Under the pieces are notes generated by a model that saw only the letters and a program-made list of their open reading frames with translations, was not told the origin of the DNA and did not search any database. From an uncultured Cetobacterium sp. (GTDB lineage: Bacteria; Fusobacteriota; Fusobacteriia; Fusobacteriales; Fusobacteriaceae), in contig NZ_CAMFHX010000008.1 of NCBI RefSeq assembly GCF_945952365.1, positions 1 through 64,000 of the forward strand: DNA of 64,000 nt, written 5' to 3'. The position numbers and the translations under genes were made by a program. Positions 11,111-48,263 of this stretch are shown here, one piece after another. Position 1 is the stretch's first letter. Each line of letters begins with the position of its first letter.

Positions 11111-11126
11111 AAATGCTCTTTATAGG

Positions 11127-11210
11127 TCATCTTTCTGGAATTAGCACCACACCTCTAAGGTAGGTTGCTGAAACGTCATAGGGCCAGTCCCTCAGTCTCT
11201 CTTGATGATT
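11127..11210 (-). promoter_or_regulatory. SAM-I riboswitch (S box) aptamer
   Basis: On the minus strand the leader reads ATCATCAAGAGAGACTGAGG, then GACTGGCCCTATGACGTTTC, AGCAACC, and GGTGTGGTGCTAATTCC. These are the conserved S-box elements in the right order (P1 5' strand, kink-turn and P2, P3, J3/4 and P4). P1 closes with GATGA at 11131-11127. Bound SAM should hold P1 closed, free the terminator at 11071-11110 and stop metK transcription. Confidence 0.96.
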
Positions 11211-11236
11211 TTTTTGTTTTTGTTTTTTACTGCTAA

Positions 11237-44441: not shown

Positions 44442-46154
44442 TTACATTCTTTCTAAAGTTCCAATTCCTAAAAGGTTTAATCCCTCTTTTAAAACTGCAG
44501 CTGTTCTTTCAGCTAATAATAGTCTTGAATAAAGAACATCTTCTTCTTGATTTAATATTGGACAAGCGTTGTAGAATCCATTGAACTTCTTTGATAACTC
44601 AAATAAGTAATCTGCAACTAGATTTGGTCTACAGCTATCTGCTGCTTTTAATATAACTGCTGGGAATTGAGTTAAGTGATGTGCTAATGTTCTTTCTGTT
44701 TTATCAGTAAATGTAACTGCTACATCCTCTCTTAAATCTTTTCCGTTCTCTACTGCTCTTCTTAAAATAGATTTTATTCTAGCATAAGAATATTGTAAAT
44801 AAGGTGCTGTATTTCCTTCGAAACTCAGAATTTTATCCCATTCAAATATAACAGCTGTCTGTCTATTTTGAGATAAATCAGCATATTTTATAGCTCCAGT
44901 TCCAACAACTTCTGCTATATTATCTTTTTCCTCATCTGATAGTTCAGGATTTTTTTCATTTACAATCTCTAAAGCTCTTCTTTTCCCTTCATCTAAAAGC
45001 TCTTCTAATCTGATTACATTTCCTTTTCTTGTAGAGAAAACACCATCAGCAAATCTCATAATTCCAAACCATACATGCTGCTTTTCTACATTCCATCCTA
45101 ACATATCAGTTATTCTGAAAAATTGTCTGAAGTGATCTTGTTGTCTCTCATCAGTTACATATATTAACTTATTTACATTATAGTTAGCTAATCTAAACTT
45201 TACTGTAGCTATATCTGAAGTTGCATATAGGAAAGCTCCATCTCTTTTTTGGATAATACAAGGGTGTAACTTCTCCTCTTCTGCGAAGAATACAACTTTT
45301 GCACCTTGATCTTCTACTGCAATCTCTTTCTCTTCTAACTCTTTAACAACACCAGGCATTAAATCGTGATAGAATGACTCTCCATAGTAAGTATCAAAAT
45401 TAATTCCCATTCTAGTGTATAACTTTCCATACTCATCTAAAGATACCTTTATAAACTCTTGCCATAATCTGTAGTTCTCTTCATCTCCATCTTGAAGTTT
45501 CTTTAACTCTTCTCTAGCTTGATCTTCAAGTTCTGGATGCTCCTCACTTTGTCTAGTGAATTCAACATATACTCTTTCTAGCTCTTCAATTGCATTTTCT
45601 TTATAAGCTTCTGCATTTAACCAGTTTCTATATCCTATAATTAATTTTCCAAACTGTGTTCCCCAATCTCCAATGTGATTGTCTGCAACAACATTAAATC
45701 CTAAATACTTATACATTCTTTTTATAGAATCACCTATTATAGTTGATCTTAAATGACCTATATGCATTCTCTTAGCTATGTTTGGTGAAGAGTAATCAAT
45801 TATTACATCTCCCTCTGTATTCAATCCCTTAAACTCATAATTTTCTTTAGATATTTTTTTTACTAAATCTGCTAAGTATGAATCTTTTAAAAATATATTT
45901 AAGAATCCTGGTCCCGCAATCTCAATTTTTTCAATAACATCATTTACAACTAAGTTATTTACTACATTTTCAGCAATTGCTCTTGGATTCCCTCCAATTA
46001 TTTTAGAGTTCATCATAGCAAAGTTTGATTGAAAATCTCCAAACTTTTCATTTGTTGCAACAGTTATCTCTACTGGTTTTAGCTCTTTATCTGAATATAA
46101 ATTTTTTACTGTATCTAATAAAATTAACTCTATTTGTTTTTCAATAGTTAACAT
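44442..46154 (-). CDS. argS: Arginyl-tRNA synthetase
   Basis: 570 aa, class I synthetase. N-terminal Add-1 domain (~1-110), the HIGH motif in SPNIAKRMHIGHLRSTIIGDS, the tRNA-binding FGIMRFADGVFSTRKGNVI (lacks a canonical KMSKS, as is usual for ArgRS), and the C-terminal DALR anticodon-binding region ending ALNLLGIGTLERM-type (AVLKEGLNLLGIGTLERM). Single gene. The structured RNA at 46178-46408 with its terminator lies 24 bases upstream, and no other promoter is visible, so argS may be read through from that unit. Confidence 0.97.
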   Translation of the reverse strand: MLTIEKQIELILLDTVKNLYSDKELKPVEITVATNEKFGDFQSNFAMMNSKIIGGNPRAIAENVVNNLVVNDVIEKIEIAGPGFLNIFLKDSYLADLVKKISKENYEFKGLNTEGDVIIDYSSPNIAKRMHIGHLRSTIIGDSIKRMYKYLGFNVVADNHIGDWGTQFGKLIIGYRNWLNAEAYKENAIEELERVYVEFTRQSEEHPELEDQAREELKKLQDGDEENYRLWQEFIKVSLDEYGKLYTRMGINFDTYYGESFYHDLMPGVVKELEEKEIAVEDQGAKVVFFAEEEKLHPCIIQKRDGAFLYATSDIATVKFRLANYNVNKLIYVTDERQQDHFRQFFRITDMLGWNVEKQHVWFGIMRFADGVFSTRKGNVIRLEELLDEGKRRALEIVNEKNPELSDEEKDNIAEVVGTGAIKYADLSQNRQTAVIFEWDKILSFEGNTAPYLQYSYARIKSILRRAVENGKDLREDVAVTFTDKTERTLAHHLTQFPAVILKAADSCRPNLVADYLFELSKKFNGFYNACPILNQEEDVLYSRLLLAERTAAVLKEGLNLLGIGTLERM

Positions 46155-46177
46155 AATTTACTCCTTTTGTTGTGAAA

Positions 46178-46408
46178 TAAAAAAAGGACCCGAAAGTCCT
46201 AAAAAAGAATAACTCCAGTCTACCGCCTTCCTTACGGTTTTGGTCGCCGTTTCATATACGTGGTAACCAGATAATGCCTATATACAGGGTCCGTGAAACA
46301 AGGGTTTCCGTGACGTATCTGAGTTATAAGCAACAGAGCCAATCCCAATAGCGACCTTAGGCCCAAAACCTCCAGATAACAGCGAGTAGACCAGAAATAT
46401 TTACTCTT
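46178..46408 (-). ncRNA. Structured RNA of ~205-230 nt upstream of argS; 6S RNA candidate
   Basis: The region between argS and aspS has no coding frame but a strong promoter (46415-46443) and an intrinsic terminator: AGGACT, UUCG tetraloop, GGUCCU (46200-46185), then seven U. The predicted 5' end AAGAGTAA (46408-46401) pairs with TTATTCTT (46212-46205), so the RNA is closed end to end. Next come CTGGTCTAC with GTAGACTGG (with wobbles), then GGTTTTGG with CCAAAACC (8 bp), then an apical region with hairpin GGAAAC CCTT GTTTC. Between these stems lie unpaired internal loops, one with a small hairpin (ACCG/CGGT) on the 3' side. A long rod with a central bubble and ~200 nt fits 6S RNA. It lacks tmRNA, RNase P, SRP and T-box signatures. 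Class is inferred, not proven. Confidence 0.75.
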
Positions 46409-46414
46409 AAGACA

Positions 46415-46443
46415 ATTATATCACTTCTATATTATTTTTTCAA
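46415..46443 (-). promoter_or_regulatory. Strong promoter of the argS-upstream RNA
   Basis: TTGAAA (46443-46438), 17-base spacer, TATAAT (46420-46415) on the minus strand. The start at about A46408 coincides with the first base of the closing stem. The 35 or so bases between this promoter and the aspS stop hold nothing else I can identify. Confidence 0.88.
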
Positions 46444-46478: not shown

Positions 46479-48263
46479 CTAAACTATTTCTGAATTATAT
46501 GTTGAATCTAAATAAAGTTCTTCTAATTGTTTGTCATCAACTTTGCTTGGTGCTTCAGTCATCAAGCATTGACCTTTATTTGTTTTAGGGAATGGTATTA
46601 CGTCTCTTATAGATTGCTCTTTTAACATAACCATTAACCATCTATCAATTCCGAATGCTAATCCTCCATGAGGTGGTGCTCCATATTTAAATGCATCTAC
46701 GAAGAATCCGAATTTATCTTGAGCTTCCTCTTTAGATAATCCTAACTTCTCAAATACTTTACTTTGGATTTCTGGATTGAATATTCTAATTGATCCTCCA
46801 CCAATTTCTGAACCATTTAATACTAAGTCATAAGAGTTTGTTCTCACTGCATCCATCTCTCCATCTAAGAACAGTTGCATATCCTCTTCTTTTATTGACG
46901 TGAACGGGTGATGTTGAGCCTTATATCTTTGCTCTTCCTCATCATATTCGAACATTGGGAAGTCTACTATCCATAAGAATTTGAATTCATCGTTATCAAT
47001 TAACCCTAACTCTTTTCCTAATTTTAATCTAACTGCACCTAAAGCTCCGTAAACAACTTTTGCTCTATCTGCAACTATCATAATTACATCTCCAACTTTT
47101 GCTTCAGTTCTAGATATAATTGCTGCCATCTCTTCCTCTGTGAAGAACTTAGCGATTGGAGAGTTTACTCCCTCTTCAGTTATCTTTATCCAAGCCATTC
47201 CTTTTGCACCAAAGTATGTTTTTGCATAGTCTTCATACTCAGTTAAAATTTTTCTTGAGAATTGCTCAGCTACACCTGGAGCTACTACAGCTTTAACTAC
47301 TCCTCCAGCTTCTACTGCACTTTGGAATCCTTTGAATCCACAAGTTGCCATTATATCCGTTAAATCTTTTAACTCTACACCAAATCTTGTATCAGGCTTG
47401 TCTGAACCAAATCTTTCCATAGCTTCTGCATAAGGCATTCTTGGGAAGTCATACTCAGCTGATTCTCCTGTTACATTTTTGAATACTCTTTTTGCTAATC
47501 CTTCAATCTCATTCATTATATCTTTTTGCTCAATGAATGACATCTCGATATCTAATTGAGTAAATTCAGGTTGTCTGTCAGCTCTTAAATCCTCATCTCT
47601 GAAACATTTAGCTATTTGGAAGTACTTTTCTACTCCTGAAATCATCAATAATTGCTTGAATAATTGAGGTGATTGAGGTAATGCATAGAAATCACCAGGG
47701 TTTGTTCTACTTGGAACTAAGAAATCTCTTGCTCCTTCTGGAGTTGACTTAGTTAAGATTGGAGTATCTACATCTAAGAATCCTTTTTCATCCATATAGT
47801 TTCTTATAGACATAATCATTTTATGTCTCATCTTTAAATTTCTAGCCATATGATTTCTTCTTAAATCTAAGTATCTATATTTTAATCTTATATTTTCACT
47901 TAAATTATCGTCTCCAGAAATTTGGAACGGTAATACATCACAGTTGTTTAAAACTTCTAATTCTGTTACGAATACTTCGATATCTCCTGTTGGAATATTT
48001 GCATTCTTACTTTGTCTCTCTCTTACAACTCCAACTACTTTTATAACTGATTCATTTTTCAATTTTTGTGCTCTTTCTACAACAGCAACCTCAGCTACAT
48101 CTGTATGGAATATTATTTGAGTTTTTCCCTCTCTATCTCTTAAATCGATAAAAGTTAACCCACCTAGGTCTCTTTTTGTATCAACCCATCCAGATAAAGT
48201 AACTGTTTCACCAATATTTGAAGCTCTTAATTCCCCTAAGTTATGAGTTCTATAATACGTCAT
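46479..48263 (-). CDS. aspS: Aspartyl-tRNA synthetase
   Basis: 594 aa, bacterial-type class II synthetase: N-terminal OB anticodon-binding domain (~1-105), motif 2 [21 protein letters not shown], the GAD insertion domain (~285-415, mark of the bacterial type), and motif 3 [15 protein letters not shown]. Charges tRNA-Asp. It lies 17 bases after hisS; rarA-hisS-aspS form one transcript unit. RBS AGGAGAAAAAGAG. Confidence 0.98.

What the first reader, a model, noticed from the sequence alone, without database searches (positions are those of the whole stretch)
46178..46443. Undescribed-looking structured RNA with its own promoter just before argS; 6S RNA candidate
Seen: consensus-like promoter (TTGAAA-17-TATAAT), predicted start A46408, and a UUCG-loop intrinsic terminator frame a non-coding stretch. 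The first 8 bases pair with bases just before the terminator, and two further long-range helices (CTGGTCTAC with GTAGACTGG; GGTTTTGG with CCAAAACC) make an end-closed rod with internal bubbles. Known: 6S RNA has this size and shape and its gene often stands alone. Inferred: it is the 6S RNA of this organism, or a novel class. Its tight link to argS (24 bases) also leaves room for a regulatory leader.
Basis: partly seen in the sequence, partly recalled or inferred. Interest (0 to 1): 0.7.

Follow-up and report, generated by a model that had tools for sequence, protein, structure and literature searches.

The report
Diverged 6S RNA gene of Fusobacteriaceae
A roughly 200-base RNA gene between two tRNA-charging-enzyme genes of a Cetobacterium-like bacterium is that lineage's 6S RNA, a widespread RNA that imitates an open promoter to hold back RNA polymerase, but it has changed so much that the standard reference model no longer recognises it.

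Summary
No Rfam family matches this copy, even at E<=10. Its relatives settle what it is. Sequence homologues lie in almost all Fusobacteriaceae. A covariance model built only from those finds one copy in 95 of 98 Fusobacteriota genomes. All 26 places in the phylum that Rfam's 6S model (RF00013) finds are the same loci. In one Fusobacteriaceae genome the RF00013 match lies in the aspS-argS gap, where this RNA sits; hisS-aspS-[RNA] order is shared across families, and the literature places B. subtilis 6S-1 next to aspS. Covariation supports a closing stem, a 13+13-nt central bubble and an apical arm: 6S architecture. Elsewhere the gene stands without argS or aspS, so it is not an argS leader. 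Best explanation: this is the organism's 6S RNA (ssrS), a promoter mimic for sigma-70 RNA polymerase; the biochemistry is inferred. It is a new member of a known kind that Rfam overlooks. A 6-base-pair alternative helix beside the expected pRNA start suggests a release switch, supported only by conserved complementarity. I could not check whether F. nucleatum transcriptome papers already list it.

The parts
46415..46443 (-). sigma-70-type promoter TTGAAA-17-TATAAT with extended -10 (TGA)
   Evidence: same hexamers and spacing in most Fusobacteriaceae copies
46178..46408 (-). predicted 6S RNA primary transcript, about 231 nt with terminator
   Evidence: promoter and terminator; no RNA-seq available
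46215..46394 (-). conserved 6S core (model R1, 180 positions), 177 bits
   Evidence: whole-phylum conservation
46388..46394 (-). closing stem, 5' strand CUGGUCU
   Evidence: 7 pairs, 3 with double-sided changes, 98% paired
46215..46221 (-). closing stem, 3' strand AGACUGG
46360..46370 (-). inner closing helix, 5' strand GGUUUUGGGCC, nearly invariant; expected pRNA template
   Evidence: pRNA role inferred
46236..46248 (-). inner closing helix, 3' strand GGCGACCAAAACC
46347..46359 (-). central bubble, 5' strand UAAGGUCGCUAUU (13 nt)
   Evidence: unpaired in consensus
46249..46261 (-). central bubble, 3' strand ACGUAUAUGAAAC (13 nt)
46339..46346 (-). upper stem base, 5' strand GGGAUUGG (pairs with 46262-46270)
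   Evidence: 8 pairs, 3 with double-sided changes, 99.7% paired
46262..46270 (-). upper stem base, 3' strand CUGGUUACC
46325..46335 (-). apical arm helix, 5' strand (pairs with 46272-46282), strongest covariation
   Evidence: 8 of 11 pairs with double-sided changes
46272..46282 (-). apical arm helix, 3' strand
46289..46314 (-). terminal hairpin GUCACG...CACGGAC, conserved motif shared with RF00013-positive copies
46350..46355 (-). GUCGCU, can pair with 46243-46248 GGCGAC in an alternative (collapsed) fold
   Evidence: pairable in 39 of 39 Fusobacteriaceae sequences, no double-sided changes; thermodynamics
46178..46200 (-). intrinsic terminator with UUCG loop

Best explanation
The locus encodes the 6S RNA (ssrS) of this Cetobacterium-like bacterium. 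It is transcribed from its own sigma-70 promoter as a rod of about 230 nt (core 180 nt): closing stem, 13+13-nt central bubble, apical arm. As in other 6S RNAs, the bubble flanked by helices should mimic an open promoter, bind the housekeeping-sigma RNA polymerase holoenzyme and lower transcription from ordinary promoters, probably most in slow growth. On nutrient recovery the polymerase should copy the 5' bubble strand and GGUUUUGGGCC into a short pRNA; the freed GGCGAC strand could then pair with GUCGCU and collapse the bubble, releasing the polymerase. Shown here: conserved single-copy gene, homology to RF00013 loci, promoter, architecture with covariation, gene order. Inferred: RNA polymerase binding, pRNA synthesis, the collapse step and growth-phase timing.
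For: RF00013 matches in 26 of 98 Fusobacteriota genomes, 21 over the cut-off. Model R1, built only from Fusobacteriaceae copies, finds one copy in 95 of 98 genomes, and all 26 RF00013 places coincide with R1 places. R1 hits the 20 fetched RF00013 loci at E 6e-24 to 9e-12; a sequence-only profile hits them at 1e-21 to 2e-9. RF00013 weakly but exactly hits two loci that are clear Fusobacteriaceae homologues of this RNA: L024 (35.7 bits, E 0.0013) and L110 (35.5 bits, E 0.0015). G039 (same family) has aspS-[RF00013, E 1e-7]-argS. hisS-aspS-[RNA] is shared by several families. B. subtilis 6S-1 (bsrA) has aspS and yrvM as its flanking genes (PMC11077062) and rarA nearby (PMC8414754); the window has rarA-hisS-aspS-[RNA]. 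Covariation. RNase P, SRP RNA and tmRNA are elsewhere in the genome, while no other 6S is found.
Against: This copy itself gets no RF00013 match, even at E<=10. R1 does not find 6S RNAs of other phyla, so the link runs through the other fusobacterial families. The inner helix and parts of the apical arm are more sequence-conserved than I would expect of 6S RNA (own knowledge). The usual pRNA hallmark (GG at 4/5 or 5/6 with a purine start) fits other Fusobacteriaceae (template CCUAAU, CCUAAC, CCUAU) but not Cetobacterium (CCUAAGG would give a C or U start). No expression or binding data.
Confidence: 0.94

Rival explanations
1. It is a regulatory leader of argS (cis-acting), ending at an attenuator-type terminator 24 bases before the start codon.
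For: Tight linkage to argS in nearly all Fusobacteriaceae; no promoter-like site was found between the terminator and argS, so argS is probably reached by read-through.
Against: The RNA is kept without argS as neighbour in Leptotrichiaceae loci and in G063 (after hisS-aspS), and without aspS or argS in genus g14 and in several Leptotrichiaceae loci (g14 neighbours). No leader or riboswitch family matches. The conserved structure is an end-closed 6S rod.
Confidence: 0.03
2. It is a 6S homologue that has changed function, for instance an RNA that binds core RNA polymerase (like Ms1) or another partner.
For: Strong sequence divergence, altered bubble sequence (GUCGYY), near-invariant inner helix; Ms1 is a structurally related RNA with a different binding mode (PMC9130861).
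Against: Same architecture, locus and single-copy distribution as the RF00013-positive relatives; nothing specific points to core binding.
Confidence: 0.1
3. An unrelated novel structured RNA class.
For: No direct Rfam match for this copy.
Against: All 26 RF00013 places in the phylum are homologues of this RNA.
Confidence: 0.02

Closest known systems
6S / SsrS RNA, Rfam RF00013 (copies in Leptotrichiaceae and other Fusobacteriota, this study)
   Same: Homologous by sequence profile and covariance model, same position after hisS-aspS in many genomes, one copy per genome, same closing stem, central bubble and apical arm.
   Different: The Fusobacteriaceae copies mostly score below the RF00013 cut-off or not at all; their 5' bubble strand carries GUCGYY complementary to GGCGAC; their inner helix GGUUUUGGGCC is nearly invariant.
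Bacillus subtilis 6S-1 RNA (bsrA)
   Same: Size and rod with central bubble; gene next to aspS (PMC11077062) and close to rarA (PMC8414754).
   Different: Sequence similarity was not tested directly; the next gene is yrvM rather than argS.
Ms1 RNA of actinobacteria
   Same: Structurally related to 6S RNA, binds RNA polymerase (PMC9130861).
   Different: Binds the core enzyme without sigma; no homology indicated here.

Membership tests
6S RNA (RF00013) | Common descent with curated 6S RNAs | tested here: met
   26 of 26 RF00013 places coincide with the model of this RNA; profiles match
6S RNA (RF00013) | Own score above the Rfam gathering threshold (a detection rule, not a biological definition) | tested here: not met
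   relatives in the same family score 43.2 and 35.7 bits against a cut-off of 46.4
6S RNA (RF00013) | About 160-200+ nt rod: closing stem, large central bubble, apical stem-loop | tested here: met
   consensus structure with 13+13-nt bubble and covariation
6S RNA (RF00013) | Independent gene with sigma-70 promoter | tested here: met
   promoter; gene order independent of argS; transcription itself not shown
6S RNA (RF00013) | Binds housekeeping-sigma RNA polymerase holoenzyme | not testable with these tools
   needs co-purification or gel shift
6S RNA (RF00013) | Serves as template for pRNA from the 5' bubble strand (GG at 4/5 or 5/6) | tested here: inconclusive
   sequence pattern fits many relatives (template CCUAAU, CCUAAC) but not Cetobacterium CCUAAGG; no pRNA data
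6S RNA (RF00013) | Abundant, growth-phase-dependent accumulation | not testable with these tools
   no RNA-seq at hand
argS leader / riboswitch | Constant position upstream of the regulated gene | tested here: not met
   argS absent next to the RNA in Leptotrichiaceae loci, G063 and genus g14

The most novel reading that the evidence does not exclude
Fusobacteriaceae 6S RNA has evolved its own release switch: a GUCGYY segment just inside the bubble, next to the expected pRNA start, pairs with the GGCGAC strand freed by pRNA synthesis and collapses the bubble. In Cetobacterium the pRNA start may have moved.
Probability: 0.25. Interest if true: 0.5.

Novelty: new member of a known kind. Interest (0 to 1): 0.38.

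Why it matters
Rfam's 6S model fails on most Fusobacteriaceae, so this global transcription regulator looks absent there. The model built here finds it once in 95 of 98 Fusobacteriota genomes, gives exact coordinates to test in tractable fusobacteria, and supports an old link of 6S RNA with aspS shared with Bacillus. It would let the Rfam family be extended and makes 6S biology testable in a phylum far from the usual models.

Tried and rejected
Direct Rfam matches of this copy: none useful; sbrA, Ysr201, ncr1241 and SNORD94 matches are noise at E > 1. RNase P, SRP RNA and tmRNA are excluded because each has its own gene elsewhere. A genome-wide exact pattern GGTTTTGGGCCTANNGTCG outside Fusobacteriaceae gave only chance matches in unrelated genomes. 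Applying R1 to 8 unrelated genomes gave nothing significant even where RF00013 finds 6S: R1 is specific, but does not reach other phyla. The alternative (collapse) helix is always pairable but shows no double-sided changes, so covariation neither supports nor refutes it; simulated pRNA binding raises its mean probability from 0.15 to 0.45 with wide scatter. Literature: the F. nucleatum RNA landscape paper (10.1038/s41564-021-00927-7) and the KhpA/B paper (10.1093/nar/gkae010) are not held. The text search found no '6S RNA' in the 2024 F. nucleatum fine-mapping paper PMC11005410, and none of the held papers found here describes a fusobacterial 6S RNA.

Full report
WHAT IS THERE. On the minus strand between aspS (46479-48263) and argS (44442-46154) lies a non-coding stretch with a near-consensus promoter (TTGAAA-17-TATAAT, extended -10), a predicted start at A46408 and a UUCG-loop terminator ending near 46178. 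The stretch folds better than most shuffles, but only moderately so (z -2.7). Rfam has no match for it at gathering thresholds or at E<=10 beyond noise. Relatives in named genomes are Cetobacterium, so the window is very probably from Cetobacterium, family Fusobacteriaceae.

CONSERVATION. A DNA search found homologues in 59 of 98 Fusobacteriota genomes, including nearly all of the window's family. In 39 non-identical Fusobacteriaceae sequences (A3, aligned by sequence only) the consensus structure has 57 pairs; 96.3% of cells form standard pairs and 240 cells change on both sides, against 87.2% and 74 in shuffles and 35-44% paired when partners are slid. It is a real structured RNA: closing stem, inner helix GGUUUUGGGCC/GGC-GA-CCAAAACC, a 13+13-nt open bubble, an upper stem and an apical arm ending in a conserved GUCACG...ACGGAC hairpin.

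IDENTITY. Rfam's 6S model RF00013 misses the window's genome but matches 26 other Fusobacteriota genomes, 21 over the cut-off. I built a covariance model, R1, from Fusobacteriaceae copies only; none of its sequences came from the loci matched by RF00013. R1 finds exactly one copy in 95 of 98 genomes. Every one of the 26 RF00013 places is an R1 place (26 of 26, more than 150 nt overlap, same strand). On the 20 fetched RF00013 loci R1 gives E 6e-24 to 9e-12, and a sequence-only profile gives 1e-21 to 2e-9 while chance matches stay above 1e-3. RF00013 itself gives graded sub-threshold matches within the family: 43.2 bits in G039, 35.7 in L024 and 35.5 in L110. In G039 the match lies exactly between aspS and argS. 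R1 is silent in 8 unrelated genomes, even where RF00013 finds 6S; it is therefore specific, and the bridge to 6S runs through the other fusobacterial families.

GENE ORDER. hisS-aspS-[RNA] recurs in Fusobacteriaceae, in G062 and in several Leptotrichiaceae genera, and aspS-[RNA] in G063; argS follows only in Fusobacteriaceae and G062. In genus g14 and in many Leptotrichiaceae loci neither aspS nor argS is adjacent. The RNA is thus an independent gene, not an argS leader. B. subtilis bsrA (6S-1) is flanked by aspS and yrvM (PMC11077062), and rarA is close to 6S RNA across lactic acid bacteria and B. subtilis (PMC8414754); the window has rarA-hisS-aspS-[RNA]-argS (rarA named by me from its sequence). 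This is independent positional support.

MECHANISM. Shown: gene, homology, architecture and promoter. Inferred from 6S RNA biology: promoter mimicry, sequestration of the housekeeping holoenzyme, and release by pRNA synthesis. In 6S RNAs with known pRNAs, GG lies at pRNA positions 4/5 or 5/6 (PMC8414754). The equivalent place here is GGCC-UAAG. Many Fusobacteriaceae (CCUAAU, CCUAAC) and outgroups (CCUAAC) would give A/GUUAGG, with GG at 5/6; Cetobacterium (CCUAAGG) would not start with a purine there, so its start may be shifted. A 6-bp alternative helix, GUCGYY with GGCGAC, is pairable in 39 of 39 Fusobacteriaceae sequences and becomes more probable when the template strand is blocked (mean 0.15 to 0.45, with wide scatter). 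It could be the collapsed state that ejects polymerase; covariation gives no evidence either way. No promoter-like site was found between the terminator and argS, so argS is probably reached by read-through.

VERDICT. It is a strongly diverged, Rfam-invisible member of a known kind. The value is practical: exact coordinates and a working model for a phylum in which the standard model fails in one large family. Whether it has already been named in F. nucleatum transcriptome work could not be checked, because the key paper is not held.

Noticed in passing
window 11124-11211 (-): SAM riboswitch (RF00162), 70 bits over a cut-off of 44.4.
   Followed up: no
window 46154-46178: No promoter-like site was found between the 6S terminator and argS, so argS may depend on read-through from aspS or 6S transcription; 6S output could thus be coupled to argS expression.
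   Followed up: partly
L114-L121 (genomes without an RF00013 match), R1 places: R1 recovers 6S candidates at 55-89 bits in Leptotrichiaceae genomes where RF00013 reported nothing, several close to hisS-aspS.
   Followed up: partly
L032-L045 (Leptotrichiaceae): No separate terminator hairpin is evident; the closing stem is followed directly by a T-run, so the 6S closing stem may itself act as the terminator.
   Followed up: no
L033 2655-3145: A cluster of at least five tRNA genes lies near 6S in this Leptotrichiaceae genome.
   Followed up: no
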